This document shows, one piece after another, positions 4,883 through 17,954 of a stretch of 37,050 nucleotides of DNA. The notes beneath the pieces are model-generated. The model was not told the DNA's origin and made no database searches. It saw only the letters and a list, made by a program, of their open reading frames with translations. The stretch comes from Alphaproteobacteria bacterium (GTDB taxonomy: Bacteria > Pseudomonadota > Alphaproteobacteria > SMXS01): NCBI GenBank assembly GCA_030836535.1, contig JAURPT010000169.1, forward strand, positions 1 to 37,050, written 5' to 3'. Each line of letters opens with the position of its first letter. Position 1 is the stretch's first letter. The translations under genes were made by a program, and so were the position numbers.

Positions 4883-4911
4883 TATATAAAAATGGCTGTT
4901 TTGGATCACAA
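4883..4911 (-). promoter_or_regulatory. Possible sigma-70 type promoter for the ferritin-like gene
   Basis: On the minus strand TTGTGA (4906-4911) and TATATA (4883-4888) are spaced by 17 bases, each matching 4 of 6 consensus positions. Its place just upstream of ATG 4828 fits, but such matches arise by chance. Confidence 0.3.
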
Positions 4912-4970
4912 AAATTCATTGCGTCTGCTGTCTGTCGGGTTACCGTTGAAGCCATGTCCTAGGGGGGAAC

Positions 4971-5453
4971 ATGACGATAGAAGAACTGGCAGCCCGTGTG
5001 CAGCGGTTGGAAGACCTGGCGGGAATCCAGGAACTCAAGGCACGCTATTGCGCGGGTTGTGACGACGATCACAATTCAGAAACACTTTCCGCCCTTTTTG
5101 TGGAAGACGGGGTCTGGGACTTTGTTGGCACAGCGCGGTGTGAGGGTATCCCGGCCATTCGGGAATTTATGGATAATCTTCGGTCCAGCGGCACCATCCG
5201 CAATTCGGCCCATATGGTGACGAACCCGAATATTCAGATTGATGGCGACACTGCCACCGGTCACTGGCGGTTCATGATGATCTACACGGGCAATGTGGGT
5301 GATGGCACGACCCAGTTTCATCGCATCATCGGCTACTATCAGGACGAATTAGTTCGCGTTGATGGCAAGTGGTTGTTCAAGAGCCTCACGCCGATGGTTG
5401 AGGAAAGCGATTCCTACCCCGTGATTGACAATCTTATTGGTTCAAAGATGTAG
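4971..5453 (+). CDS. SnoaL-like (NTF2-fold) protein
   Basis: A 160-residue protein of the SnoaL-like/NTF2 superfamily, whose members act as small-molecule isomerases, dehydratases or hydroxylase partners. The N-terminal helix TIEELAARVQRLEDLAGIQELKARYC is the usual opening, followed by DDDHNSETLSALFVEDGVWD and a curved sheet with NIQIDGDTATGHWRFMMIY. The ATG at 4971 follows an AGGGGGGAAC ribosome site. It is the first gene of the plus-strand run and lies 7 bases ahead of the second LLM gene, so the two are very probably co-transcribed. Known relatives in catabolic clusters often act on steroid- or terpenoid-like rings, but the substrate here is not known. Confidence 0.75.
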   Translation: MTIEELAARVQRLEDLAGIQELKARYCAGCDDDHNSETLSALFVEDGVWDFVGTARCEGIPAIREFMDNLRSSGTIRNSAHMVTNPNIQIDGDTATGHWRFMMIYTGNVGDGTTQFHRIIGYYQDELVRVDGKWLFKSLTPMVEESDSYPVIDNLIGSKM

Positions 5454-5460
5454 GTTCACC

Positions 5461-6582
5461 ATGGCCATTATTGATGAAAACAGCACAAATCCGCTCCTGA
5501 GCAGCGCTAATCGACTAAAGCTCGGGATTTTTGGCGTCAATGTCTCGAGCGGCTGCTCGATGACAGACATGCCCGAGACCATCAAGGTCGAATGGGATGA
5601 ATCTGTCCGCATTGCCCAATTGGCTGAATCCATTGGCATTGAAGCCATGGTGCCGGTTGCCCGTTGGCGGGGCATGGGTGGTTCGGTCAATTTTAACCAC
5701 CGTAATTTCGACCCCTTCACCTGGGCGGCCGGCCTGTCGGCTGTCACCAGCCGGATCGCGCTGTTCTCTACCTTCCATATCCCGACGGTTCATCCCGTGC
5801 GCGCGGCCAAGGAAGTGGCGACCATCGACCACATCTCGGGCGGGCGGTTCTGCCTCAATATGGTGGCGGGCTGGAATGACAAGGAAATCGCCATGTTCGG
5901 TGCGCCGCAGAAGGACCATGACGAACGTTACGATGTTGCCGATGACTGGATTTCGCTCTGCAAAGCACTTTGGTCCACCGATGGCACCTTTGATTATGAC
6001 GGGCCGTATTATCCGGTGGCGGATGCCTATTCAGAACCCAAGCCCGTCCAGGCACCGGCACCCGTTTTGATGAGTGCCGGTAATTCACCGCGCGGCCAGC
6101 ATTTTGCGGCCAAGCATACGGATTTGAATTTTGTGGTGGCGCGCGACCTGGAAACAGTCGGCGATGCCGTCAAAGGCGTGAAGCAATTGGCGCGAGAGGA
6201 ATATGACCGTGACATCCAGGTGTTTGGCCAAGCCTATATTGTCTGCCGCGAAACGGAGAAAGAAGCGCAGGACTATGTCGACTATTACGTTAACCAGCAG
6301 GGTGACTGGGAAGGCGTGCGCAATCTGCTCGATGTGCTGATTCCCAATTCACAGAGTGCTTTGGGGGATGATTGGGAGGCGATGGCCGCCAATATGATCG
6401 CCGGCTATGGGGCGCTGCCACTGGTTGGCACGAAGGAACAGATTGTTGAAGGTCTGCAGGGTTTTGCCGATGCGGGCGTTGACGGCCTGACCCTGTCTTG
6501 GGTGGACTATGAGGCAGGCCTCAACCAGTTCCGTGATGATATTTTGCCGCTTATGGTGCAGGCCGGGTTGCGTGAAGGCTGA
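5461..6582 (+). CDS. LLM-class flavin monooxygenase, RutA/SfnG-like
   Basis: A 373-residue luciferase-like monooxygenase. LGIFGVNVSSGCSMT, VPVARWRGMGG, ISGGRFCLNMVAGWN and the GNSPRGQHFAAKHTD segment are typical of the subgroup holding RutA (pyrimidine ring opening) and SfnG (dimethyl sulfone monooxygenase). Such enzymes need FMNH2 from a separate reductase and split C-N or C-S bonds or oxidise carbonyls. ATG 5461 is chosen; the frame is open to 5425, but that part overlaps the previous gene and lacks family similarity. It ends in TGA six bases before the TAG of the convergent third LLM gene. Confidence 0.85.
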   Translation: MAIIDENSTNPLLSSANRLKLGIFGVNVSSGCSMTDMPETIKVEWDESVRIAQLAESIGIEAMVPVARWRGMGGSVNFNHRNFDPFTWAAGLSAVTSRIALFSTFHIPTVHPVRAAKEVATIDHISGGRFCLNMVAGWNDKEIAMFGAPQKDHDERYDVADDWISLCKALWSTDGTFDYDGPYYPVADAYSEPKPVQAPAPVLMSAGNSPRGQHFAAKHTDLNFVVARDLETVGDAVKGVKQLAREEYDRDIQVFGQAYIVCRETEKEAQDYVDYYVNQQGDWEGVRNLLDVLIPNSQSALGDDWEAMAANMIAGYGALPLVGTKEQIVEGLQGFADAGVDGLTLSWVDYEAGLNQFRDDILPLMVQAGLREG

Positions 6583-6588
6583 TAGCGC

Positions 6589-7428
6589 CTAGCCAACTCT
6601 TTCTGCCAATTCCGCCAAGGGCTTCAAAACGTCTGCACTGTGCGGCGGCGGCAGGTAGAACACCATCAGGTCCAACCCCGCCTCTTTGAAGGCTTTGCAG
6701 TTTTCTTCCAACTCATCCAGCTTATCCATTTCGGCAGACTGGTGAATGGAGGTCATGATTTCAGACGGGTCCCGGCCAATATCAGCACAGCATTGGTGCA
6801 GCACCTCGCGCTTGGCGATAAAACCCTCCAGGTCGAAGGCAGCATAGTTCCAGTGCTGGGCATATTTAGCCACATTGGGCAGGGTGCGCTTTTCGCCATT
6901 GCCGCCAATCAGTAGCGGCGGGTGTGGTTGCTGGATGGGCGGCGGGTTGTTACGCGCATCCGTCAGGGAGAAATAGTTACCAGAGAAGTTCGAAACCTCC
7001 TGCGTCAGCAGGGAATGGATGACCGCGAGGGCTTCGTCGAACCGGTCGAAACGCTGTTTCATGCTGCCAAGCTCGATGCCATAGGCGTCGCATTCTTCCT
7101 CGTTCCAGCCAGCGCCCAGGCCGAGTTCTAACCGTCCGCCAGAGACAATATCCAGTGTCGAGATCATATTCGCCAACACGGCTGGGTGCCGATAGACGAT
7201 GCCGGAGACAAGACAGCCCACGCGAATACGCTTGGTCGCCTGCGCCAGTGCCGTCAGCGTGATCCAGGCCTCCATGCAGGGGCCGGTCGTGTCGGGCACA
7301 TTGATGGGGTAGAAGTGGTCAAAATTCCACGCTGAGTGGAATATTTCCATCTCGTCGGCAGTCTGCCAGACAGACAGCATATCTTCCCAGGTGGTGTATT
7401 GCGGTGATGTCTTGATGGCGTAGAGCAT
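6589..7428 (-). CDS. Luciferase-like (LLM) flavin-dependent oxidoreductase
   Basis: A 279-residue LLM protein, third of the family in this window, with the usual flavin-site segments SGGRLELGLGAGWNEEE and PPLLIGGNGEKRTLP and the barrel strand TKRIRVGCLVSGIVYRHP. In several LLM subfamilies this form is F420-dependent, but this cannot be decided here. The ATG at 7428 is backed by an AAGGAGGGG ribosome site; the frame runs up to 7518 without family similarity. It is transcribed away from the amidohydrolase gene at 7563, with 134 bases between them that must hold both promoters. It is convergent with the RutA-like gene. Confidence 0.85.
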   Translation of the reverse strand: MLYAIKTSPQYTTWEDMLSVWQTADEMEIFHSAWNFDHFYPINVPDTTGPCMEAWITLTALAQATKRIRVGCLVSGIVYRHPAVLANMISTLDIVSGGRLELGLGAGWNEEECDAYGIELGSMKQRFDRFDEALAVIHSLLTQEVSNFSGNYFSLTDARNNPPPIQQPHPPLLIGGNGEKRTLPNVAKYAQHWNYAAFDLEGFIAKREVLHQCCADIGRDPSEIMTSIHQSAEMDKLDELEENCKAFKEAGLDLMVFYLPPPHSADVLKPLAELAERVG

Positions 7429-7562
7429 TGTCCCCTCCTTCTGTTCCCCTCTGTGGACGCTAGAAACGGCGCGGGGGCCTGTCAACCTGCCATTGCTTTT
7501 GGCTAATTGATAGAACACTATGCCTGCATACGCGTGGCGGCATGCGTAGAAGGGGAGAGACC

Positions 7563-8909
7563 ATGGCTTCGGGCATTCTGATTGAAAATGGCAATGTAAT
7601 AGACGGCACCGGTGCGCCCATGCGCACGGAATCGGTGCTGGTAGATGGTGAAAATATCACCGCGACGGGCTCGGACGCCGACAAACAGGCGGATGGTCGC
7701 AACGATATTCGCAAAATTGACGCCACGGGCATGACCGTCATGCCCGGGATGATTGACGCCCACTGCCACATCACTTTTGACGAACCGACATCGAATGACG
7801 AGTTGTTCAACCACCGTTCGCGCGAGGGCCTGGCGGCTATCATTGCAGCGGCCAATGCCCGCAAATTGCTGTTGGCCGGGGTGACTGGCATCTTCGATGC
7901 CGATTCGATTTTCCTGACCGGTATTGACCTGCGCGACGCTATTGAAGCCGGCGTGGTTGAAGGCCCTCGCATGGCCACGGGCGGTAATGCGCTGGTTACA
8001 TCGGTTGGCGGTACCGCCGGGCATATGATCCCCGATGAAGGCCGGGCGGGCTATGCCATGGCCGTGCGCGGCAAGGACGAAATCATTGCCGAGGTGCGCC
8101 GAGAGATCAAAGCAGGCGCAGACTGGATCAAGGTGCATGTCACCGGCCTGGTGCCGCGCCAGCGCCACCTGGGCGAGCTACGTGTTTGGTCTGATGAAGA
8201 ACTCGATACTGTTTGCAAGGCCGCGCATGATTTGGGCATTCGTGTTGTTGGCCATTGCCGTGGCGGTGAAAGCACGGCTGCGGCGGCCAAGGCTGGGTTC
8301 GACATGATTCTGCACGCCACGTTGATTGATGATTATGCGCTGGAAGAAGTGGTGAAGGCCAATGTGCCGCTGGTGCCGACGTTCACGTTCCAGGCCAATC
8401 TGGCCGATTGGGGCGACAAAGTTGGTAGCGACCCGGGGCTGAAAGACGTGTTCCGCCGCGAGATTGAAGACAGTGCCAAGACCCTTCGCGCAGCCTATGA
8501 TGCAGGCGTGCCCCTGCTATGCGGATCAGAAAGTGGGTTTGCGCTGACACCTTATGGCGAGTGGCACTATCGCGAGATGGAAATCTTCATCAACGACTTT
8601 GGGCTGACTCCCTTGCAGGCCATCCAATGTGGCACCCAGGCCGGGGCCCTTGCGCTGGGGCTGGAAGGCAAGGTCGGCGAGATTGGCGCGGACAAATTGG
8701 CGGATATTCTGGTGGTTGATGGCGACCCGGTGAAGGACATCCGCGTCCTGGGCGACCACAAAAACCTGAAGCATGTCTTCAAGGGTGGCAGGGAAGTCGA
8801 CCTGATGAACCGCCCAGCAGAGCGGCAGCCGATCAGCGGGTGGCGAGTTAGCTCCTTTGCCGACCGTATACTGACCCGTGAGGTTGCCCGCGAGGGTGGC
8901 AGCGCGTGA
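7563..8909 (+). CDS. Amidohydrolase (imidazolonepropionase-like subgroup)
   Basis: A 448-residue metal-dependent amidohydrolase. It begins with the small beta domain (ILIENGNVIDG), then the metal motif MIDAHCHIT (H67, H69), a Lys-bearing strand IKVHVTG, a GHCRGG histidine and the C-terminal AGALALGLEGKVGEIGADKLADILVVDGDP that closes the beta sandwich. Members hydrolyse C-N or lactone bonds, often in cyclic compounds. ATG 7563 follows AGGGGAGAG. It opens a tight plus-strand run: its last bases overlap the start of the first P450 (GTGA), showing translational coupling. The substrate is unknown. Confidence 0.85.
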   Translation: MASGILIENGNVIDGTGAPMRTESVLVDGENITATGSDADKQADGRNDIRKIDATGMTVMPGMIDAHCHITFDEPTSNDELFNHRSREGLAAIIAAANARKLLLAGVTGIFDADSIFLTGIDLRDAIEAGVVEGPRMATGGNALVTSVGGTAGHMIPDEGRAGYAMAVRGKDEIIAEVRREIKAGADWIKVHVTGLVPRQRHLGELRVWSDEELDTVCKAAHDLGIRVVGHCRGGESTAAAAKAGFDMILHATLIDDYALEEVVKANVPLVPTFTFQANLADWGDKVGSDPGLKDVFRREIEDSAKTLRAAYDAGVPLLCGSESGFALTPYGEWHYREMEIFINDFGLTPLQAIQCGTQAGALALGLEGKVGEIGADKLADILVVDGDPVKDIRVLGDHKNLKHVFKGGREVDLMNRPAERQPISGWRVSSFADRILTREVAREGGSA

Positions 8910-10111
8910 GCGACCCGATCAAAGACTATCAGCTAGCGTCTAAAACGCTGCGGCAGCGCGACCTGCGCCAGGGCCTTTATGATGAAGGCGCGGTGCTGAT
9001 GGACGGCGTGCTGGTGAACCTGCATGGGGACAAGCACAAGGCGCGTCGTGGGCTGGAAAACAAGGTCTTCCGGCGCGATTTCTTCAAATATTACGAGCGG
9101 GAAGTGTTTCCCGACTCCTTGCAGGCAACGATTGATCGTTTTGTCGATCAGGGCGGCGGTGATCTGGTCGAGTTCGGCTTCCGAGCCATGATGAACCTGA
9201 CCATCGATTTCGCAGGCATTGACCGACCTGACAGGACCGAAGAAGAAACAGATACGCTGTTGCGCTTGCTGCGCAGTTTTGCCTTGGGGACGACGTTGGC
9301 ACACTCCAAGGATGACCGGGAACGGGTGCGCCAGGAAGTGCGCGATGCTTTGGCAGAATTTGATGAGCGGTTCCTGCAGCCGTCGATTGATCGCCGACAG
9401 GCCATTATTGACCAGTTTGAAGCGGGTGACCTCGAAGAAGAGGCCCTGCCGCGCGATGTGCTGACGGTTTTGCTGCGCAATGAAGATAATATCGATCTGC
9501 CGCGTGATGAATTGCTGCGTGAAATGGCATTTTTCTTTGTGGCGGGAGCCCAGACCAGCATCCATTCGCTGGTTCATTCGGTGCATGAGATTTTCGACTG
9601 GTGCGATACCCATCCCGAAGACAAGCAACGCCTGAAGGACGACCCATTGTTTATTCAGCGCTGTGTGCATGAAAGTGCGCGGTTGCATCCATCCAGCCCT
9701 GTGGCGATGCGGCGCGCCGAATGCCCGACCCATTTGCCCAATGACGCGGCGGTGGATAAAGACGAATTGGTGGTGATCGACCTGATGGGCTCCAATCGTG
9801 ACGCCAGTGTTTTTGGGGAGGATGCAGATCTCTTCAACCCGAACCGTGACCTGTCTGGCTCTACAGCGGCTTATGGCTTGTCGTTCGGGTTGGGCATGCA
9901 TGCCTGTATCGGGCGGAATCTGGCAGCTGGTGTGACGCCCCGGTCCGATGAAGCCGCAGCGGACCACCAATTGGGCACGATCACCCTGATTGTTCAGGTG
10001 CTGCTGGCGTATAATGTGCGGCCAGACCCCGACCATGCACCACAAATGGATACCAAGACCGAACGCCCGAATTGGGGCCTGTATCCGGTTCTGATTGGCC
10101 CGGAAACCTAG
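8906..10111 (+). CDS. Cytochrome P450 (first of a tandem pair)
   Basis: A 401-residue P450. The heme-thiolate motif is FGLGMHACIGRNLA (C334) and the K-helix ExxR is ESAR (E256-R259). The I-helix reads AGAQTS (213-218): the usual acidic residue before Thr is Gln. The C-helix motif (LHGDKHKARR) comes only about 40 residues in, so the usual N-terminal 50 or so residues are missing, while the segment after the Cys is lengthened. The start is GTG 8906, overlapping the amidohydrolase stop by four bases. No ferredoxin or ferredoxin reductase lies nearby, so electrons must come from elsewhere. It is clearly paralogous to the next gene. It ends in TAG. Confidence 0.85.
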   Translation: MSDPIKDYQLASKTLRQRDLRQGLYDEGAVLMDGVLVNLHGDKHKARRGLENKVFRRDFFKYYEREVFPDSLQATIDRFVDQGGGDLVEFGFRAMMNLTIDFAGIDRPDRTEEETDTLLRLLRSFALGTTLAHSKDDRERVRQEVRDALAEFDERFLQPSIDRRQAIIDQFEAGDLEEEALPRDVLTVLLRNEDNIDLPRDELLREMAFFFVAGAQTSIHSLVHSVHEIFDWCDTHPEDKQRLKDDPLFIQRCVHESARLHPSSPVAMRRAECPTHLPNDAAVDKDELVVIDLMGSNRDASVFGEDADLFNPNRDLSGSTAAYGLSFGLGMHACIGRNLAAGVTPRSDEAAADHQLGTITLIVQVLLAYNVRPDPDHAPQMDTKTERPNWGLYPVLIGPET

Positions 10112-10114
10112 ACC

Positions 10115-11365
10115 ATGTCGGCATCATCTGTTGAACCACGACGGACAGTCGAAGTCGCCACCTATGTCGAGGCGCGGGCAGGGCTGTTGAATCGTAATCT
10201 CCGGCAAGCGCTGTATGATGAAGGCGCCGTTGTCATGGAAGATGTTTTGCTCACGCTGCATGGGCCGCCGCATCGTGCCCGCAGGGCGATGGAACACCGG
10301 ATATTCCGACGCGACTTTCTGCGCTATTACGAGCAGGAACTGTTCCCAGCAGTATTGGAAGAAACATTAAGGCCATTTCTGGAGGCAGGACAGGCAGACC
10401 TCGTCCAATTTGGCTATCAGGTTACCATGAACCTGACAGCGGATTTTGCCGGTGTCGACCGACCGGAAAAGTCGCCCGAAGAAACAGCAAGCCTATTGGC
10501 GTTGGTGAAGAAGTTCAGCGAAGGGGCCACGCTGGTGCATTCCACGCGGGACAGGGAAGGAGTTCGCGCCGAAGTGCGGGCGGCGCTGGAGGTTTTTGAC
10601 GAACAATTTCTGCAGCCATCTATTGCGCGCCGCCGTAAGGCCCTAGCAGCGCTGGACGCGGGCACCATTACCGAGGCTGAGCTGCCACGCGATATTCTCT
10701 GTGAGCTGTTGCGGGGCGAATCGGAACTGCCGCTAGAACCGGAATTGTTGCGGCGCGAAATCGCCTTCTATCTGCAGGCGGGGTCGCACAGTACGGCGAA
10801 TGCAACTGTCCATGCCTTGCATGATTTGATGGTCTGGGGCGAGCTGTACCCCGAAGATCTGCAGCGTGCGAAGGATGACATGCTGTTTCTGCAGCGTTGT
10901 GTCCATGAATCCCTGCGGTTGCGGCCCGCCAGCCCGGTTGCCTGGCGCAGGCCCGTTTGCCCGGCAGAGGTAGACGGTGCAGGGCCTGTTGATGAAGATG
11001 ATCGCGTGGTGCTTAATCTGCATGCTGCCAACAGAGACCAAAGCATCTATGGGCCTACGGCAGATGATTATGACCCGCACCGGCAGGTGCCGGAGGGGCG
11101 GGAACCCTGGGGGCTGACCTTCGGGGTGGGTATTCATATCTGCCTGGGGCGCGACCTGGATGGTGGCACGGCCCAGAAGGGCAGGTACGACCCGGCGACC
11201 CATCAATATGGCATTATTGCCTTGCTGGTCCGGGCGTTGCTGGACCATGGTGCCGTGGTTGATGCGGCTAATCCGCCACAAGAAGACGAAACAACAGAAC
11301 GGCGCAATTGGGGTGCATACCCTGTGCTCTTTCCTGGGCGCTATACCAAGAAACGGGGGGAATAA
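10115..11365 (+). CDS. Cytochrome P450 (second of a tandem pair)
   Basis: A 416-residue P450 closely related to the one before: both share ALYDEGAV or GLYDEGAV, RRDF, YYE and FLQPSI at matching places. The heme motif is FGVGIHICLGRDLD (C343) and ExxR is ESLR (E265-R268). The I-helix reads AGSHST (222-227), with His where P450s normally have Asp or Glu. The N-terminus is again short and the post-Cys region long. It starts three bases after the first P450's TAG and its TAA overlaps the next gene's ATG by one base, so it is part of one operon. Tandem duplication followed by divergence is the simplest origin. Confidence 0.85.
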   Translation: MSASSVEPRRTVEVATYVEARAGLLNRNLRQALYDEGAVVMEDVLLTLHGPPHRARRAMEHRIFRRDFLRYYEQELFPAVLEETLRPFLEAGQADLVQFGYQVTMNLTADFAGVDRPEKSPEETASLLALVKKFSEGATLVHSTRDREGVRAEVRAALEVFDEQFLQPSIARRRKALAALDAGTITEAELPRDILCELLRGESELPLEPELLRREIAFYLQAGSHSTANATVHALHDLMVWGELYPEDLQRAKDDMLFLQRCVHESLRLRPASPVAWRRPVCPAEVDGAGPVDEDDRVVLNLHAANRDQSIYGPTADDYDPHRQVPEGREPWGLTFGVGIHICLGRDLDGGTAQKGRYDPATHQYGIIALLVRALLDHGAVVDAANPPQEDETTERRNWGAYPVLFPGRYTKKRGE

Positions 11366-12114
11366 TGAAACAGGCAATCGTAACGGGCGCGGGCGGCGAT
11401 ATTGGCACGGCTATTACCAAGTTGGCCTTAGATCAGGGCTATCGTGTCGGGGCGATTGATATGAACCTCGATATGGTTCAGCCCCTGGCGGACGCGCATA
11501 ACAATGTTGTCGCGCTCGCTGCCGATATTCGCGATGCCGAGCAGGTACAGGCTGCTTTTGATGCCTTTGGCGACGCGCCGGATGTGCTGGTGAACAATGC
11601 CGGGCTGGTGCGTTTTGGCCCGCTGGAAGAGCTGGCTATTCAAGACTTTCAAGACGTGGTCGACGTCAACCTTGTCGGCACGTTCATTGTCTCGCAAATT
11701 GCGGCCCGGGCGATGATGGCCAATGGCGGCGGTGCCATGGTCAATATTACGTCCATGGGCGGTATTCACCCGGCACCGGGTGGCGGTGCTTATGGGGCCA
11801 CAAAGTCTGGCCTGGCGCAGATGACAGAGCTGATGTCTGTGGAATGGGGCCCGTCCGGCATCCGTGTGAACGCGGTAGCCCCCGGCTTTATTGATGCCGG
11901 CATGTCTGCGCCCTTCTTCAAGGACCCGGTGGTGCGAGAATTGCGGGGTGGTGGCGTGCCGCTGCGACGCCTCGGCACCGCAGAAGACGTGGCAGAGGCG
12001 GTGATGTTCCTGGCGTCTGATGCCGCCAGCTATATCTCTGGGCAGGAACTGGCTGTTGATGGCGGTGTGATCAACTCCGTGCTGGCGCAATTGCCGCGTG
12101 AGCGCCCGGAATAG
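11365..12114 (+). CDS. Short-chain dehydrogenase/reductase (SDR)
   Basis: A 249-residue classical SDR. The nucleotide motif TGAGGDIG (7-14), the NNAG motif (77-80), catalytic S130, Y143 and K147 (YGATK) and the C-terminal SGQELAVDGGV are present, so it should be an active NAD(P)-dependent alcohol dehydrogenase or ketone reductase. Asp at the end of the second strand (AIDMN) suggests NAD over NADP. Its ATG at 11365 overlaps the P450 stop (TAATG). In this operon it most likely oxidises an alcohol made by the P450s. Confidence 0.9.
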   Translation: MKQAIVTGAGGDIGTAITKLALDQGYRVGAIDMNLDMVQPLADAHNNVVALAADIRDAEQVQAAFDAFGDAPDVLVNNAGLVRFGPLEELAIQDFQDVVDVNLVGTFIVSQIAARAMMANGGGAMVNITSMGGIHPAPGGGAYGATKSGLAQMTELMSVEWGPSGIRVNAVAPGFIDAGMSAPFFKDPVVRELRGGGVPLRRLGTAEDVAEAVMFLASDAASYISGQELAVDGGVINSVLAQLPRERPE

Positions 12115-12120
12115 GAACCA

Positions 12121-12816
12121 ATGCAGAAGAACCTGATCATTGCCGGGGGGATTTTCCACCCCTTTGAGGAAAGCTCAGCTGCCTTGGCGGCGCAGCTGGA
12201 GCCATTGGGTATCCAGTCGACCATCACCATGGATATTGAAGGGGCGCTGGGTGGCCTTGATGACTATGACATGGTGACGATGAACTGCCTGCGTTGGCGG
12301 ATGATCCAACACGAAAAATACATCCCCTATCGGGACGAATGGGCGATGGAGCTTTCTCAGGCTAGCCGCGATGCGCTGACTACCTTTGTGCAGGGTGGCG
12401 GCGGTCTACTTGGTCTGCATACGGCAAGTATTTGTTTTGATATTTGGCCGGAGTGGAAAGACTTGCTCGGCGTCGCCTGGCAGTGGGGACAGTCTCACCA
12501 CCCCGAAATTGACGATATCGATATCAAGGTTAATTCTACTGCGCATCCCATTGTCGCGGGTATTGATGACTTCACCGTGCATGATGAAATTTATCATCAT
12601 CTGGCAGCGGCCGATGATGCGCCGGGTCTTTTATTTGCCGAGGCTGCTGAAGGCCGCCAGCCCTTGATGGTCGCGCGCCAGGTAGGCGACGGACGGTCGG
12701 TCTATGACGCGCTGGGTCATGGGCCAGAATCTGTGGCCCACCCCAGCCATGCGCGGTTGCTCAAGCGGTCGGCCCTGTGGTTGCTGGGCCGTGATGACGA
12801 AGTGAGGGATATCTGA
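12121..12816 (+). CDS. ThuA-like protein (class I glutamine-amidotransferase-like fold)
   Basis: A 231-residue ThuA-like domain protein. Family landmarks are VQGGGGLLGLHTA, the ...AHPIVAGIDDFTVHDEIYHH stretch and ARQVGDGRSVYDALGHGPES, with WLLGR near the C-terminus. ThuA was named in trehalose/sugar catabolism in rhizobia, but the family's reaction is poorly known, and here it sits in an oxidative operon with no sugar genes. The catalytic Cys of true glutaminases is replaced by His/Thr in GLHTA. A GGAA ribosome site precedes ATG 12121. Its TGA overlaps the next ATG by one base. Confidence 0.8.
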   Translation: MQKNLIIAGGIFHPFEESSAALAAQLEPLGIQSTITMDIEGALGGLDDYDMVTMNCLRWRMIQHEKYIPYRDEWAMELSQASRDALTTFVQGGGGLLGLHTASICFDIWPEWKDLLGVAWQWGQSHHPEIDDIDIKVNSTAHPIVAGIDDFTVHDEIYHHLAAADDAPGLLFAEAAEGRQPLMVARQVGDGRSVYDALGHGPESVAHPSHARLLKRSALWLLGRDDEVRDI

Positions 12817-13577
12817 TGCGCTCCGTTGAAGGCATGTCGATCCTCATAACCGGTGGGGGTTCCGGGCTGGGCGAAGGGGCGGCCCGCTACTTCGCAGTAC
12901 GCGGTGCGCGCGTGACCATTTGTGGTCGTCGGTTGGAAAAAATTGAGGCTGTTGCCAACTCCATCGGGCCGAATTGCCTGGGTCTGCAGGCGGATATTAC
13001 CAAGGCGGAAGATCGCGACCGTCTGGTTGAAGCAGCTGTTGCCCATGGTGGTGGGTTGCATGGGTTGGTTAACAATGCGGGCAACATGATGCGTGGTCCT
13101 ATTGCCGAATTGGACGAACAGGGCCTGTTGGATATTTTCCATACCAATGTGGTGGCAGGCATGATGTTGACAGGGCTGGCCCAGCCGCATCTCGCCAAAG
13201 AAGGCGGGGCGATTGTCTTTATGGGATCGGTACACACCCGGCGGGCTTTTCCCGGTGCGTCACCCTATGCCGCCAGTAAGGGGGCTGTGGAAGCCCTGAC
13301 CAAGGTGCTGGCCGCAGAACTGGGCAGCCAGAATATCCGGGTTAATTGCATTGTGCCTGGCGCGGTGCTGACGGAAATTAACCAGCGGGCGGGCCTGTTT
13401 GATGACGAAGCAGCGGCCAAACGGCTGAATGACATGGCCTCATCGCATGTGTTGGGACGCATTGGCAGGGAAGAAGAAATCGCCGAGGCCATGGACTATC
13501 TGCTGCGGGCAGAATGGACCACAGGGACATCGGTAGAGGTAGATGGCGGGTTGGGGCTTGGCCTTACAAATGCCTGA
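12816..13577 (+). CDS. Short-chain dehydrogenase/reductase (SDR)
   Basis: A 253-residue classical SDR, distinct from the one at 11365. TGGGSGLG (12-19), NNAG (86-89), catalytic S138, Y151 and K155 (YAASK) and the closing SVEVDGGLGL are all intact. Arginines after the second strand (CGRR) suggest NADP preference. It is coupled to the ThuA-like gene by a TGATG overlap. Two SDRs with different likely cofactors in one operon suggest two separate alcohol/ketone steps in the pathway. Confidence 0.9.
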   Translation: MRSVEGMSILITGGGSGLGEGAARYFAVRGARVTICGRRLEKIEAVANSIGPNCLGLQADITKAEDRDRLVEAAVAHGGGLHGLVNNAGNMMRGPIAELDEQGLLDIFHTNVVAGMMLTGLAQPHLAKEGGAIVFMGSVHTRRAFPGASPYAASKGAVEALTKVLAAELGSQNIRVNCIVPGAVLTEINQRAGLFDDEAAAKRLNDMASSHVLGRIGREEEIAEAMDYLLRAEWTTGTSVEVDGGLGLGLTNA

Positions 13578-13592
13578 TCAATTGAGGATAGA

Positions 13593-14588
13593 ATGACCGG
13601 TTTGAAAGAAGCAAAATCGATTGATGTGCACGCCCATGCGGTGCTCGACATGGCCATGGGCGCCGCTGGCGAACATGGGCCGGAGCTAACGGAAGAGCCC
13701 GGCAAGCCTGCCGTCTTTCGTGTCGGCGGCTACACGCTGCATGGCGTGAAATATCGCCAGAGTCCGTTCATGGACCCGGACCGACGCATTGCGGCGATGG
13801 ACAAGGCAGGGATTGATTTTCAGGTCATTTCACCGAACCCGCTGACTTACTTTCATTATATCGATGTGCCCAATGCGGTGCGCTTTAACCAGAAATATAA
13901 TGAAGGTCTGCAGGACCTGTCTGTTCGCTATCCAGATCGTTTGGCGGGTTTTGCTGGCCTGCCGATGCAGGATGTCGGCGCCGCTGTTGAAGAGCTGTAT
14001 CGGGGCGTACAGGAACTGGGCCTGCTCGGGGGCTATATCGGTACAGATTTCGGCATGCCGCTGGATGACCCAGAGATGGACCGACTATACGAGGCCTGCG
14101 TGAAGCTCAATGTGCCGCTGTTTATTCACCCCGCCCCGGCAGGGATCGACGGTCCGGCGGGCGACCCGCATCTCGACCGCTACGACATGGCCCTGACAAC
14201 GGGTTTTGCTGCCTCTGAAACCATTGCAGTGGGCTCGCTCATTTTTGGGGAGGTGCTGGAGCGTCACCCGGACATTGATATCTGCCTTAGCCATGGCGGT
14301 GGGGCGGCGATGTTCCTTTTGGGCCGCATGGCACAGGCCAGCCGGGTACGCCCCTGGGCACCCGCCTCCCTGAGTGCGGAAGGCGCCTATGAAGAAATAC
14401 TGGGTAAGCTGTGGTTTGACACCAATGTGCATGAGCCACGGTCCCTGCAATTGATGCGTGACATAGTTGGTGATGAAAAGCTGGTTTTCGGCACCAATTT
14501 TGCCGGTTGGGACCAGGCAGACCCACACCTGCCAGACGGTTTCATGGATGTATTGACGGCCAATGCCAAGCGATTGCTGCGCGCCTAG
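13593..14588 (+). CDS. Amidohydrolase family 2 (ACMSD-like) protein
   Basis: A 331-residue TIM-barrel protein like aminocarboxymuconate-semialdehyde decarboxylase and related aromatic-acid decarboxylases or hydrolases. The HxH metal motif is SIDVHAHA (H13, H15), then FIHPAP and CLSHGGG supply further His ligands, with the barrel strand FAGLPMQD. The last metal/catalytic Asp, normally in a GTD or GSD motif before Pro, is Asn here (N302 in FGTNFAGWD), so activity or mechanism may differ. AGGATAG precedes ATG 13593. It lies 15 bases after the SDR and ends the tight part of the operon (TAG). Confidence 0.8.
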   Translation: MTGLKEAKSIDVHAHAVLDMAMGAAGEHGPELTEEPGKPAVFRVGGYTLHGVKYRQSPFMDPDRRIAAMDKAGIDFQVISPNPLTYFHYIDVPNAVRFNQKYNEGLQDLSVRYPDRLAGFAGLPMQDVGAAVEELYRGVQELGLLGGYIGTDFGMPLDDPEMDRLYEACVKLNVPLFIHPAPAGIDGPAGDPHLDRYDMALTTGFAASETIAVGSLIFGEVLERHPDIDICLSHGGGAAMFLLGRMAQASRVRPWAPASLSAEGAYEEILGKLWFDTNVHEPRSLQLMRDIVGDEKLVFGTNFAGWDQADPHLPDGFMDVLTANAKRLLRA

Positions 14589-14742
14589 TGATTTTGGGTG
14601 TGTTCACAATAATCCGCAGAATTGATCCTAATCACAGGCACGGTTTGCCTGCTGGGGTTAGATGTTCCCGTAATGACGGAATCGCGCCGCCAAAGGGCGG
14701 GCTTGTTGCCGATGAAACGTTCCAAACGGGAAGGAAGATACA

Positions 14743-15987
14743 ATGAAAAATCTGCTGGAGCTTAAACCGCGCGAACGGGTTGCTGCACTCGCTGATGTGA
14801 TCGCCAAGGGCGGTGACGAAGCGCAGGACCTGCGCCGCCTGCCGGAGCACACAAAGGACGCCTTGATCGACGCGGGCATTTTCCGCTTTGCCATGCCGAA
14901 AGAACTTGGCGGCGACGATGCGACCATTACAGAAACCATTGATATCCTTGCTGATATTTCCGCCATCGACGCTTCCGTCGGCTGGAACGTGATGCTGGTC
15001 TCAGAAATCAATGCCATGACTGCAGGCGGTATGGATAAAGAGCTGGCTAAAGAGGTTTTCCTCGATAACCCACGCGTTGTCATGTGCGGTGGCGGTGGCC
15101 CGGGCTCCAAGCCTGCCTATGCGATCAAACAGGATGATGGCGGCTATAAGGTTTGGGGTGAAACGACCTTTATCTCCGGCGTGCATAATTCTGAATGGTG
15201 CTTCATGGGTGCGCCCGTCATCGAAAATGACGCCCCCATTTGCGACGACAATGGCAATCCCATCATCAGCATGTGGTTCCTGAACAAGTCTGAGTACACG
15301 ATCCTGGATACATGTGATGTTGCGGGCCTGCGCGGCTCCGGCAGCCATAGCGTGTTGGCCGAGGGTGCCTATGTGCCTGAGAAATTCGCCAATGTTGAGC
15401 TGATCAGCTTCCCCGCCCATTACGACAACCCGGCCTTCCGCGTACCGACACCGCTGCGTCTGGCCTATAACAAGGCCGCTATTGCCATTGGTGTGGCCCG
15501 TGGTGCGCTGGATGCGTTTGTCGACCTGACCAATAACAAAGTGCCGATGTTGTCGCCGTCGAAGCTGAAGGATCGGCCGATTGCCCAGTACAAGCTGGTG
15601 CAGAGCGAAGCCAAATATCGTGCGGCCTATGCCTACCTTATGGATGCGTTCCATGATGTGGAGGAAGAACTGTTGGCCGGGGCCGAATTGCCTGGGCCTG
15701 AAACGACCCAGAATGCGCGCTTGGCCTGCATCTATGCCGGCGACAGCTGCATGGAAATTGTTGATGTTATTCACAACGCTGCGGGCACCAGTACCTCCTA
15801 TATGGAGAACCCGCTGGAGCGCAAATTGCGCGATGCCCATGGCGCAGCCACCCACCGCTGGATTGCTCACCCGCTCTATCAAGACCTTGGTTCCATCCTG
15901 ATGGGGAACCCCGCTAGTCATGAATTCGTGGGCGACCCGGGCGGCCCTGCACTGGGTGCCAAGTTGAAGAAAGACGGCTCTGTATAA
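14743..15987 (+). CDS. Acyl-CoA-dehydrogenase-fold flavin monooxygenase or dehydrogenase
   Basis: A 414-residue protein with the acyl-CoA dehydrogenase fold. The N-terminal helices hold FRFAMPKELGG and DASVGWNVML, the middle beta domain GGYKVWGETTFISGVHNSEW and the C-terminal part HNAAGTSTSYMENPLERKLRDAH, the pattern of group D flavin-dependent monooxygenases (HsaA, DszC, HpaB-like) rather than of a CoA-ester dehydrogenase with a clear catalytic Glu. GGAAGG precedes ATG 14743. The 154 bases before it hold only a small hairpin (CAGGCA/TGCCTG) and no convincing promoter. It fits a hydroxylation step in ring breakdown. It stops at TAA, overlapping the next gene's likely start. Confidence 0.8.
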   Translation: MKNLLELKPRERVAALADVIAKGGDEAQDLRRLPEHTKDALIDAGIFRFAMPKELGGDDATITETIDILADISAIDASVGWNVMLVSEINAMTAGGMDKELAKEVFLDNPRVVMCGGGGPGSKPAYAIKQDDGGYKVWGETTFISGVHNSEWCFMGAPVIENDAPICDDNGNPIISMWFLNKSEYTILDTCDVAGLRGSGSHSVLAEGAYVPEKFANVELISFPAHYDNPAFRVPTPLRLAYNKAAIAIGVARGALDAFVDLTNNKVPMLSPSKLKDRPIAQYKLVQSEAKYRAAYAYLMDAFHDVEEELLAGAELPGPETTQNARLACIYAGDSCMEIVDVIHNAAGTSTSYMENPLERKLRDAHGAATHRWIAHPLYQDLGSILMGNPASHEFVGDPGGPALGAKLKKDGSV

Positions 15988-16435
15988 TCCAGCCATCTAT
16001 ATCGATGGGGATGCATGCCCCGTCAAAAAAGAGATTGTCCGTGTCGCCGAGCGTCACGGGCTTTCTGTTTTTCTGGTGGCCAATGCCTGGATTCACCTGC
16101 CGCACCCACAGGTCGAACTGGTGGTTGTCTCTGAAGGGCCAGATGAAGCCGACAATTGGATCGCAGACAATATTGGCAAAGCGGACATCTGCATTACGGC
16201 GGATATCCCACTTGCCTCTCGCTGCCTGGAAAATGAGGCCCTGGTGCTCGGCCCTACCGGCAAAGCCTTTACGCCTAATAATATCGGCAATGCATTGGCG
16301 ATGCGGGAGTTGAAGTCGCATTTGCGCGAGACGGGTGAGGGTGGCAACTACAACCCGTCCTTTACGCAGAAGGACCGGTCGCAATTCCTGCAGTCGCTGG
16401 AAAACCTGGTGCAGTCTGCCAAGCGGCAGCGATAG
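15980..16435 (+). CDS. yaiI: YaiI/YqxD family (DUF188) protein
   Basis: A DUF188 protein with a PIN-like fold. The N-terminal signature AIYIDGDACPVKKEI, then VANAWI, ITADIPLAS and the C-terminal NPSFTQKDR give a near-complete 151-residue protein, the usual family length. No ATG, GTG or TTG lies ahead of the signature: the frame is closed by TGA at 15965 and the only plausible start is CTG 15980, or ATC 15995. The first standard start is GTG 16076, which would remove 32 residues including the DxDACP motif. AAGAAAG lies just before CTG 15980, and the overlap with the previous stop suggests coupling. Confidence 0.8.
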   Translation: MYNPAIYIDGDACPVKKEIVRVAERHGLSVFLVANAWIHLPHPQVELVVVSEGPDEADNWIADNIGKADICITADIPLASRCLENEALVLGPTGKAFTPNNIGNALAMRELKSHLRETGEGGNYNPSFTQKDRSQFLQSLENLVQSAKRQR

Positions 16436-16519
16436 GGCATAGCGCAAAAACCTCTTGCAGCGGGCGATAGATATTCCTATCGATCAGGGCAGCTGGTTTT
16501 TGATTAACGGGAGGCCCCC

Positions 16520-16993
16520 ATGGCATCACGCCGCGATATGATCATGATGAATGATGAGGAATTGCACGACTATGTGCGCGCTGAAAAGACGCTGATCATC
16601 GTTTCCAATTCACCCGATGGCTTCCCGCACCCGATGCCGATGTTTTTCTATACGGATGACGAAGGGCGTTTTCTGGTCTCCACCTATGGGGCGAGCCAGA
16701 AGGTCAAGAATTTCGAGCGCGACAACAAGGCAGCCCTGCTCATTGAGTCTGGTGGCGAATATGAAGAGCTGAAGTCAGTTGTCATGCAGGCGACGGCCGA
16801 GATTATCGACGACAATGACTTTGTGGTAGAGACCATGAAGAACATTCGCCTGCAACGTGACCCGGCCAAAGAAGGCTTCCCGGAAGAAGAGTTGGAAGGC
16901 ATTGCCTATGCAGCGCGTAAACGGGTGATTATCCGCTTCACGCCGGTTAACACGATCAGCTGGGACCACACCAAGCTGGGCGGCGTATATTAG
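16520..16993 (+). CDS. PPOX-type split-barrel flavoprotein
   Basis: A 157-residue pyridoxamine-phosphate-oxidase-like split-barrel protein. Typical segments are LIIVSNSPDGFPHPMPMFF (first barrel strands), FLVSTYGASQKVKNFERD (flavin or F420 phosphate site) and AALLIESGGEYEELKSVVMQ. Members bind FMN, F420 or heme; in a cluster with three LLM enzymes it might supply reduced flavin or act on an F420-linked step, which is inference only. GGGAGG precedes ATG 16520. The 84 bases before it contain a 6-bp inverted repeat (CGATAG/CTATCG) of unknown meaning. Its TAG overlaps the convergent gene's TAA by three bases. Confidence 0.8.
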   Translation: MASRRDMIMMNDEELHDYVRAEKTLIIVSNSPDGFPHPMPMFFYTDDEGRFLVSTYGASQKVKNFERDNKAALLIESGGEYEELKSVVMQATAEIIDDNDFVVETMKNIRLQRDPAKEGFPEEELEGIAYAARKRVIIRFTPVNTISWDHTKLGGVY

Positions 16994-17850
16994 GGTGCAG
17001 GTTTTTCCCAATCCAGGATACGGCGCAACGTCGCGCCGAAGATCCAGTCCTTTTCCTCGGGTGTAATGCCGTCGCTGTCGAGCAGGTAGTGCACCAGCTG
17101 CGCCCATGTTTCGCCGGTCTGGTTGCCACCCCAGTCGGATGCCCAGGTAATCCTGTTTGCGCCAAAGGCTTCAATAGCCCGGCGCAAATAGGGGATCAGC
17201 CCAGGTGAGGGATAGTCCAGCTCACCAAACATGCCTTGGGCATGGCTCCATTTCAGGTCAACATTCGGCCAGGACGCCAGCTTGAGGACTTCCTCAAAAT
17301 AGGCAGGCTGCGGACCGGGGTGCGGTGGGGCCCCTTCAATGGCAACAACGCCGGCTTCCATGGGCATGCCGCAATGGTCGACAACAAAATTCAGGTCGGG
17401 GAACTGGTCCAGATAGGGGTGCAGCAACTCGACATGCCCGGCGATAAACAGGAAAATTGGCATGCCGACTTCCTGGCAGGTCTGGAATATGTCGATATAG
17501 CCGCCATTCGCCATCGCCTCCAACTCGTCGGGTGAAACTGCCGGGATCACACGGATCGCTCGGCAATGCGGGTCATCATCAGCAATGCGAATGAGTGCCA
17601 AAACCTCCGGGTCGGTGCGCTCAACACGGGCGACGTAGGAAAAGCGGTCCGGGTGCAGGGCGCCGGCGAGTTCCACAGTCGGGCGTGTGGGGCGAAAGGT
17701 GCCATTCGGTAGTGTGTAGCCTGGCCCCCAGGTTTCCAGACCCCAGAACTCATCGACCAGCACGCCCTGAATGCCAAGAGCGTCCATCTCGGCAAGAATG
17801 TCGTCTATGCCGCCCGGGCCGAAGTGAATTTGCGAATCTACGATGTCCAT
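16990..17850 (-). CDS. Amidohydrolase family 2 (TIM-barrel hydrolase)
   Basis: A 286-residue amidohydrolase of the group with 2-pyrone-4,6-dicarboxylate lactonase and fuconolactonase. It begins MDIVDSQIHFG (DxQxH metal motif), has FLFIAGHVELL, the NFVVDHCGMPM His strand and ITWASDWGGNQ near the end, where the Asp of the active site sits. Members open lactone rings, a common late step in aromatic ring catabolism, which fits the cluster. ATG 17850 is chosen because AGGGGG lies upstream; the open frame above it is not family-like. It is on the opposite strand to the cluster and divergent from the DUF748-like gene. Confidence 0.85.
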   Translation of the reverse strand: MDIVDSQIHFGPGGIDDILAEMDALGIQGVLVDEFWGLETWGPGYTLPNGTFRPTRPTVELAGALHPDRFSYVARVERTDPEVLALIRIADDDPHCRAIRVIPAVSPDELEAMANGGYIDIFQTCQEVGMPIFLFIAGHVELLHPYLDQFPDLNFVVDHCGMPMEAGVVAIEGAPPHPGPQPAYFEEVLKLASWPNVDLKWSHAQGMFGELDYPSPGLIPYLRRAIEAFGANRITWASDWGGNQTGETWAQLVHYLLDSDGITPEEKDWIFGATLRRILDWEKPAP

Positions 17851-17954
17851 ATACGCCCCCTTTTTGGTGATTATGCCATCTGTACTCGTCTTGCCAAGTT
17901 CTGTGGTCAGTCGTACTCTCGGAAGATCTGGAATAGCCCGCAACCAAAGAGAAT

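What the first reader, a model, noticed from the sequence alone, without database searches (positions are those of the whole stretch)
4971..17850. Large oxidative catabolic cluster of unknown substrate
SnoaL-like, two LLM monooxygenases, two P450s, two SDRs, three amidohydrolases, ThuA-like, HsaA/DszC-like monooxygenase and PPOX-like proteins lie together, with an epoxide hydrolase, CoA-transferase and MFS importer further on. The set suggests hydroxylation, oxidation, ring opening and hydrolysis of a heteroatom-containing or polycyclic compound. No ring-cleavage dioxygenase, ferredoxin or transcription regulator is inside.
Basis: inference. Interest (0 to 1): 0.52.

Follow-up and report, generated by a model that had tools for sequence, protein, structure and literature searches.

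The report
Conserved double-P450 amidohydrolase catabolic operon
Seven enzyme genes in this stretch form an operon whose order recurs in many unrelated water-dwelling bacteria, including very small-genome ocean species, so it is very probably a real pathway for breaking down a still unknown dissolved ring compound, run by an unusual kind of P450 enzyme pair.

Summary
The listed genes are there, but what holds together is smaller: a packed operon at 7563-14588, AH1-P450a-P450b-SDR1-ThuA-SDR2-AH2. The six-gene order is exact in 26 of 81 related loci, consistent but cut in 8, and rearranged (P450 pair first) in 11. AH1 is in 15 of 18 genomes of a streamlined marine family, but in 1 of 398 phylum genomes, the window's own. 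LLM1 belongs too: 17 of 49 cassette genomes against 2 of 372 class genomes, both carriers. ACAD, PPOX, AH3, epoxide hydrolase, CoA-transferase and MFS do not follow the cassette.

The enzymes are atypical. Both P450s lack about 40 N-terminal residues, carry a 15-residue insert after the heme cysteine and have His or Gln for the I-helix acid. AH1 has Glu (82 of 82) and AH2 Asn (49 of 49 readable) for the catalytic Asp.

Likely role: oxidative then hydrolytic ring opening, perhaps of an N-heterocycle. The substrate is unknown; five literature searches found no description.

The parts
7563..8909 (+). AH1: imidazolonepropionase/Xaa-Pro-dipeptidase-like amidohydrolase with Glu instead of the catalytic Asp (residue 330 in the 455-aa ORF that starts at 7542)
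   Evidence: Amidohydro_1 E 1.2e-32; Glu in 82 of 82 relatives; aligns to the Asp of PDB 2qs8, 9kov and 3mtw; start chosen from the ATG with a ribosome-binding-like sequence
8906..10111 (+). P450a: divergent cytochrome P450, first of the tandem pair
   Evidence: PF00067 E 2.9e-18; model pLDDT 93.1 with P450 fold Z 36.9; residue features
10115..11365 (+). P450b: paralogue of P450a, second of the tandem pair (His-Ser in place of acid-Thr)
   Evidence: PF00067 E 9.7e-16; 49% identical to P450a
11365..12114 (+). SDR1: short-chain dehydrogenase
   Evidence: PF13561 E 6.8e-57; found in 60 of 81 loci
12121..12816 (+). ThuA-like protein
   Evidence: PF06283 E 4.6e-23; model pLDDT 95.8; Z 24.5 to ThuA-like 4e5v; 43 of 81 loci
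12816..13577 (+). SDR2: short-chain dehydrogenase
   Evidence: PF13561 E 4.9e-51; 43 of 81 loci
13593..14588 (+). AH2: ACMSD-like amidohydrolase 2 with Asn302 instead of the catalytic Asp
   Evidence: PF04909 E 7.7e-31; nearest solved structures are ACMSD, E 9.5e-38; Asn in 49 of 49 readable relatives; aligns to the Asp of ACMSD; 49 of 81 loci
7429..7562 (.). 134-base divergent intergenic region between LLM2 and AH1, presumed promoter region
   Evidence: sequence; promoter scan found no more matches than shuffles
6589..7428 (-). LLM2: luciferase-like monooxygenase, divergent from the operon
   Evidence: PF00296 E 2.4e-40; TIGR03560 277 bits against a cutoff of 231; same divergent place in the sister species; 72% identical and beside the cassette in L123 and L125
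5461..6582 (+). LLM1: RutA/SfnG-group FMN monooxygenase
   Evidence: PF00296 E 1.1e-56; RutA and DMSO2 monooxygenase among the nearest solved structures; co-occurs with the cassette
4971..5453 (+). SnoaL_4-like protein, peripheral, membership unproven
   Evidence: PF13577 E 4.1e-29
14743..15987 (+). HsaA/DszC-like flavin monooxygenase, peripheral, followed in the sister species only
   Evidence: sister-genome order SDR2-[cupin]-ACAD-DUF188-[P450]-PPOX

Best explanation
A conserved operon encodes the oxidative and hydrolytic opening of a dissolved ring compound. Shown: operon packing, conserved order across classes, patchy distribution, the enzyme families and their altered residues. Inferred steps: (1) P450a and P450b, fed by an external [2Fe-2S] ferredoxin (encoded inside the cluster in some relatives), oxidise the ring, perhaps as a pair or in sequence. 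(2) SDR1 and SDR2 dehydrogenate the alcohols. (3) AH1, with Glu at the catalytic position, hydrolyses the activated ring bond (amide, lactone or diketone C-C). (4) AH2, an ACMSD-like enzyme, decarboxylates or cleaves a product. (5) LLM1 and LLM2 make further oxygenative cleavages. ThuA acts on an intermediate, step unknown. I commit to an N-containing ring as the likeliest substrate class (about 0.35 within this reading), because relatives add an XDH-family Mo-hydroxylase and a Rieske oxygenase and because LLM1 groups with RutA.
For: Order AH1-P450a-P450b-SDR1-ThuA-SDR2 exact in 26 of 81 loci, 8 more cut by contig ends but consistent, 11 Halieaceae-type loci with the pair moved ahead of AH1, 5 variants. 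Present in 15 of 18 genomes (6 of 6 high quality) of a family with 0.9-1.4 Mb genomes, yet in 1 of 398 phylum genomes; the P450 pair is in 2 of 10 genomes of the window's own family. LLM1 at 66% identity or more in 17 of 49 cassette genomes, against 2 of 372 class genomes, both cassette carriers. Mo-hydroxylase large subunit in 19 of 82 loci, Rieske in 22, SnoaL_4 in 19, Fer2 ferredoxin in 13, MFS in 22. L122/L123 hold nearly the whole set on one contig.
Against: No substrate, expression or enzyme data. 31 of 81 loci keep AH1 without the P450 pair nearby, and in 28 of those 31 genomes the pair is absent altogether, so AH1 can work in another context. The sister species has a cupin where AH2 would be and a second P450 further on. 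The P450s lack the canonical acid, so ordinary hydroxylation is not assured. The 80 GTDB loci are the best of 129, chosen by AH1 similarity.
Confidence: 0.66

Rival explanations
1. The operon degrades a terpenoid or steroid-like alicyclic compound; the P450s hydroxylate it, the LLM enzymes act as Baeyer-Villiger oxygenases and AH1 opens the lactone.
For: A limonene-epoxide-hydrolase-like protein is near the cassette in 11 loci; an HsaA-like gene follows in the window. Steroid catabolism has been reported in SAR86, OM60, Novosphingobium plasmids and Sphingomonas (PMC4810484, passages), which overlaps this distribution; P450 structural neighbours include CYP142 and CYP125.
Against: No recurrent CoA ligase, thiolase, KshA/HsaC/HsaD set or 3-ketosteroid dehydrogenase was recognised among the recurrent neighbour families that I annotated. 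The HsaA-like gene is not conserved with the cassette. P450 fold neighbours say nothing about substrate.
Confidence: 0.2
2. A biosynthetic or modifying operon (small secondary metabolite or signal) rather than catabolism.
For: Best P450 NCBIfam and fold neighbours are biosynthetic P450s such as the CYP134A1 type and P450BioI; a single P450 homologue sits on a Streptantibioticus plasmid.
Against: No scaffold-making enzyme (NRPS, PKS, terpene synthase, RiPP, cyclodipeptide synthase) was recognised among the recurrent neighbours annotated; MFS and TonB importers, a Mo-hydroxylase, a Rieske oxygenase and ACMSD-like AH2 recur instead.
Confidence: 0.08
3. A detoxification island: it inactivates one inhibitory compound without using its carbon.
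For: Freshwater carriers include strains named as microcystin degraders or their relatives (Novosphingobium THN1 in PMC6691742, abstract and passages), and it lies on plasmid pTHN.
Against: Retention in 15 of 18 streamlined marine genomes suggests a common substrate; two to four oxygenases and several dehydrogenases are more than a detoxification usually needs (inference).
Confidence: 0.06

Closest known systems
Lumichrome (riboflavin) catabolic cluster lum of Nocardioides simplex (PMC12746152: abstract, passages, sections 10 and 16 read)
   Same: Uses the same chemical vocabulary: a P450, hydrolases that open a heterocycle, a xanthine-oxidase-like Mo-hydroxylase and a Rieske dioxygenase.
   Different: LumU is a fused self-sufficient P450, there is a thiamin-dependent decarboxylase and an extradiol dioxygenase, and ThuA is not mentioned in its text. 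The present core has a stand-alone P450 pair and none of those in the window.
Cytochrome P450 superfamily (nearest folds P450BioI, CYP134A1, CYP109)
   Same: Heme-Cys loop, ExxR, C-helix HxxxR and overall fold (Z 36.9, rmsd 2.4, 341 aligned).
   Different: 17% identity; about 40 N-terminal residues missing, 15-residue insert before helix L, His/Gln for the I-helix acid, two tandem paralogues in the standard form.
Amidohydrolase superfamily: Xaa-Pro dipeptidase/Cc2672 group (AH1) and ACMSD family (AH2)
   Same: HxH, and in AH1 also the Lys, His and His metal ligands with the spacing of the superfamily motif quoted in PMC4407906.
   Different: The last motif residue, Asp, is Glu in AH1 (82 of 82) and Asn in AH2 (49 of 49 readable).
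RutA/SfnG group of FMN-dependent luciferase-like monooxygenases (LLM1)
   Same: E 2.5e-36 to RutA (5wan) and E 2.0e-31 to dimethylsulfone monooxygenase (8t0u), nearly full length.
   Different: Far under every NCBIfam equivalog cutoff (SfnG 184 of 383, RutA 148 of 498 bits).

Membership tests
Cytochrome P450 | Heme-Cys loop FGxGxHxCxG, ExxR, C-helix HxxxR | tested here: met
   Cys, Glu, Arg and His invariant in 40 first, 40 second and 9 other P450s
Cytochrome P450 | Acid-alcohol pair in helix I (usual, not universal) | tested here: not met
   Acid position: first P450 27 His, 12 Gln, 1 Phe; second 40 of 40 His with Ser for Thr. Five other P450s of the window's genome have Glu or Asp. Neighbour family c36 also lacks the acid
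Cytochrome P450 | Full N-terminal part (helix A, first strands of sheet 1) | tested here: not met
   43 residues before the C-helix His in P450a and 52 in P450b against at least 86 in other P450s; model residue 1 aligns to residues 34-62 of the 50 listed chains
Amidohydrolase superfamily (AH1) | HxH...Lys...His...His metal ligands | tested here: met
   H74, H76, K197, H238 and H258 invariant in 82 of 82
Amidohydrolase superfamily (AH1) | Catalytic Asp at the end of strand 8 | tested here: not met
   Glu330 in 82 of 82, opposite the Asp of 2qs8, 9kov and 3mtw. It remains a homologue; hydrolytic activity is not assured
ACMSD family (AH2) | HxH, His, His ligands and catalytic Asp | tested here: not met
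   His residues met in 49-50 of 50 rows; Asp is Asn in 49 of 49 readable
ThuA-like family | ThuA fold | tested here: met
   Pfam PF06283; Z 24.5, rmsd 2.2, 212 aligned to 4e5v. Enzymatic activity not testable here
Lumichrome lum cluster | Fused P450-ferredoxin-reductase, thiamin-dependent decarboxylase, extradiol dioxygenase | tested here: not met
   P450a and P450b are single-domain; no thiamin or extradiol-dioxygenase family among the families scanned in the window's cluster or the recurrent neighbours annotated
9,10-seco steroid catabolism | KshA, HsaA, HsaC, HsaD set | tested here: inconclusive
   An HsaA-like gene only, under cutoff; the genome was not searched for the others

The most novel reading that the evidence does not exclude
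This is an undescribed pathway for a ring compound common in sunlit water, near-universal in PS1-type streamlined ocean bacteria and shared by Halieaceae and sphingomonads. It runs on a new P450 subfamily that works as an obligate pair with a His-based proton relay, and on two 'amidohydrolases' whose swapped catalytic residues (Asp to Glu, Asp to Asn) mark a chemistry other than amide hydrolysis, for example C-C bond hydrolysis or decarboxylation. A boldly specific version: the substrate is an alloxazine- or pterin-like photoproduct.
Probability: 0.2. Interest if true: 0.75.

Novelty: new variant of a known kind. Interest (0 to 1): 0.55.

Why it matters
Bacteria that keep only about 1.3 million bases of DNA rarely keep multi-gene catabolic operons, so the substrate should be common in the surface ocean; naming it would add a line to the dissolved-organic-matter budget. 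The P450 pair (shortened N-terminus, insert behind the heme cysteine, no I-helix acid) and the two amidohydrolases with conserved swaps at a near-invariant residue are clean, testable questions in enzyme mechanism. Named, non-MAG carrier records exist (Sphingosinicella microcystinivorans DSM 19791, Novosphingobium spp.), so the question can be tested now.

Tried and rejected
Whole-region cluster 4971-17850: rejected, because ACAD, PPOX, AH3, epoxide hydrolase, CoA-transferase and MFS do not recur with the cassette. A tRNA-Arg predicted inside LLM2 (6921-7007): treated as a false positive, because it lies inside a gene kept at 72-80% identity and Rfam finds no RNA in 4900-18000. Promoter and terminator scan: 8 and 15 sites against 7.8 and 13.3 in shuffles, uninformative. 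Curated-family naming: among the ten proteins scanned only LLM2 passed an NCBIfam cutoff (TIGR03560).

Literature: bile-salt degradation in Sphingomonadaceae (listing only), ThuA + amidohydrolase + P450 + gene cluster + degradation (none), PS1 clade + P450 (none), SAR86 + amidohydrolase/Rieske/P450 (listing, which led to PMC12746152 and PMC4810484), ThuA-like + amidohydrolase + P450 + marine (none). LigY as precedent for a Glu ligand in the AH2 branch is recalled; the search for it found nothing. A His in the I helix of StaP (CYP245A1) is recalled; the searches did not confirm it. A search on the conserved aspartate of the amidohydrolases led to PMC4407906. Microcystin link: PMC6691742 passages mention P450 once, without this operon.

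Substrate naming by gene content was tried for steroid, terpenoid and N-heterocycle and left open. Not tested: whether LLM2 co-occurs genome-wide; the 49 of 129 AH1 relatives that the tool dropped.
Full report
WHAT IS THERE. The window is contig C136 of an alphaproteobacterial assembly of 2.68 Mb; its sister species is a GTDB record titled Alphaproteobacteria bacterium. The compact part is 7563-14588: AH1, P450a, P450b, SDR1, ThuA, SDR2, AH2, with gaps of -4, +3, -1, +6, -1 and +15 bases. LLM2 (6589-7428) runs the other way from a 134-base gap, and LLM1 (5461-6582) lies beyond it. After AH2 there are 154 bases before the HsaA-like gene.

CONSERVED ORDER. P450a hits on plasmids led to pTHN of Novosphingobium sp. 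THN1, and a search of related genomes led to G057; both carry AH1-P450a-P450b-SDR1-ThuA-SDR2 in that order at 40-61% identity. One scan of 84,980 species genomes with AH1 gave 129 relatives, of which the tool kept the best 80. With pTHN that makes 81 loci. The exact six-gene order is in 26. Eight more (L022, L023, L040, L052, L054, L061, L065, L080) agree up to the contig end. Nine Halieaceae loci, plus two cut ones (L076, L091), have the P450 pair ahead of AH1, mostly with a GntR regulator between them. Five vary: L031, L063 and L064 have one P450; L057 and L093 lack ThuA. The other 31 have AH1 without the P450 family nearby; in 28 of those 31 genomes it is absent altogether at E 1e-60. Many of these have a Rieske oxygenase and a SnoaL_4 protein instead. 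On an AH1 tree of 82 rows the P450-type label changes 9 times against 25.7 in shuffles, so it is clustered but was gained or lost repeatedly.

DISTRIBUTION. The P450 alignment finds 8 of 385 genomes of the class, seven of them with two copies. In the window's own family 2 of 10 genomes have the P450 pair, both of the same genus. AH1 is in 15 of 18 genomes of the family of G057 (0.9-1.4 Mb; 6 of 6 among the high-quality ones), but in 1 of 398 drawn from the phylum, the window itself. GTDB titles of carriers include PS1 clade, OCS116, SAR86, Halieaceae/Luminiphilus, Porticoccaceae, Woeseiaceae, Sphingomonadaceae and Caulobacteraceae. SAR86 carriers have the Rieske form, not the P450 form.

LLM1 BELONGS. 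LLM1 occurs at 66-81% identity in 17 of 49 cassette genomes and in 2 of 372 class genomes at E 1e-140, the window's and G234, which is also a cassette carrier. LLM1 and LLM2 sit beside the cassette in L122/L123 and L125; L128 has LLM1. In the Halieaceae stretches fetched, LLM1 lies elsewhere, next to an SDR2-like gene at 55-57%.

WIDER GENE SET. Recurrent neighbours by number of loci among 82: MFS 22, Rieske oxygenase 22, a third SDR 22, Mo-hydroxylase large subunit 19, SnoaL_4 19, a ChrR-type cupin 18, glyoxalase 14, Mo-hydroxylase Fe-S subunit 14, Fer2 ferredoxin 13, MarR 12, GntR 11, limonene-epoxide-hydrolase-like 11, TonB receptor 11. L122/L123 hold nearly all: Rieske, SnoaL_4, a three-subunit Mo-hydroxylase, LLM1, LLM2, LEH, SDR2, ThuA, SDR1, P450b, P450a, AH1, MFS, ferredoxin, PQQ protein, AH2. 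The window's genome has a 55% homologue of the Rieske protein on another contig.

ODD ENZYMES. P450a and P450b keep the heme-Cys loop, ExxR and HxxxR, and P450a folds as a P450 (pLDDT 93.1; Z 36.9, rmsd 2.4, 341 aligned). They have 43 and 52 residues before the C-helix His, against 86 or more in other P450s of these genomes, and a 15-residue insert between the Cys loop and helix L that none of the 20 comparison P450s with that region readable has. The acid position of the acid-alcohol pair is His 27, Gln 12, Phe 1 in 40 first P450s and His in 40 of 40 second ones, where Thr is Ser in 40 of 40 (89 of 96 P450 ORFs were of usable length). The five other P450s of the window's genome read here have Glu or Asp; the neighbour family c21 has Glu in 9 of 9, while c36 lacks the acid. 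[quoted passage not shown] AH1 keeps HxH, Lys, His and His, but the last residue of the superfamily motif (quoted in PMC4407906, passages) is Glu in 82 of 82; AH2 has Asn there in 49 of 49 readable rows of 50. HMMER alignments place both opposite the Asp of solved relatives. All AH1 rows come from one clade picked by its own motifs, so 82 of 82 shows fixation in that clade, not independent origins. ThuA is a clean ThuA-like fold (pLDDT 95.8; Z 24.5) with invariant His13, His100, Cys105, His127, Asp155, Glu156 and His200 in 31 sequences.

HOW IT MAY WORK. Inferred order: oxygenation by the P450 pair with an external ferredoxin, dehydrogenation by SDR1 and SDR2, ring hydrolysis by AH1, decarboxylation or C-C cleavage by AH2, further cleavage by LLM1 and LLM2; ThuA unplaced. 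The P450-type and Rieske-type carriers share AH1, SDR1 and AH2, which suggests shared middle steps and exchangeable oxygenases. The set resembles in chemistry, not in genes, the lumichrome pathway (P450, heterocycle hydrolases, xanthine-oxidase type, Rieske; PMC12746152, abstract, passages and sections 10 and 16). That, LLM1's kinship to RutA and the Mo-hydroxylase make an N-heterocycle my first guess, at low confidence. Steroid or terpenoid remains possible: steroid genes have been reported in an overlapping set of lineages (PMC4810484, passages).

LIMITS. No expression or biochemistry. The sister species has a cupin where AH2 would stand, an extra P450 before PPOX, and no AH2 on that contig. 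Literature coverage is open-access only, so 'undescribed' rests.

Noticed in passing
window 6921-7007 (+): ARAGORN calls a tRNA-Arg inside the LLM2 gene; Rfam finds no RNA there. Probably a false positive.
   Followed up: yes
L030, L032, L048, L049: Four carrier contigs are titled 'Klebsiella pneumoniae' MAGs, but their AH1 sequences place among uncultured gammaproteobacterial groups; the names are probably wrong in the records.
   Followed up: no
L014:16158-17288: P450b of plasmid pTHN ends early and its remaining C-terminal part is not in frame, while the Novosphingobium ERN07 locus (L074) has a longer ORF. Either a real lesion or a sequencing error.
   Followed up: no
L133 (sister species contig C156): In the sister species a ChrR-cupin-like gene stands in place of AH2, and an extra canonical P450 lies before PPOX.
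   Followed up: partly
window 35314-37041 (-): A PQQ-type beta-propeller dehydrogenase at the window edge has 39-40% relatives near the cassette in Halieaceae loci; the link is unclear.
   Followed up: no
window 21533-23728 (-): FdhF/YdeP-family molybdopterin oxidoreductase (671 bits against a cutoff of 582) beside an epoxide hydrolase; unrelated to the cassette.
   Followed up: no
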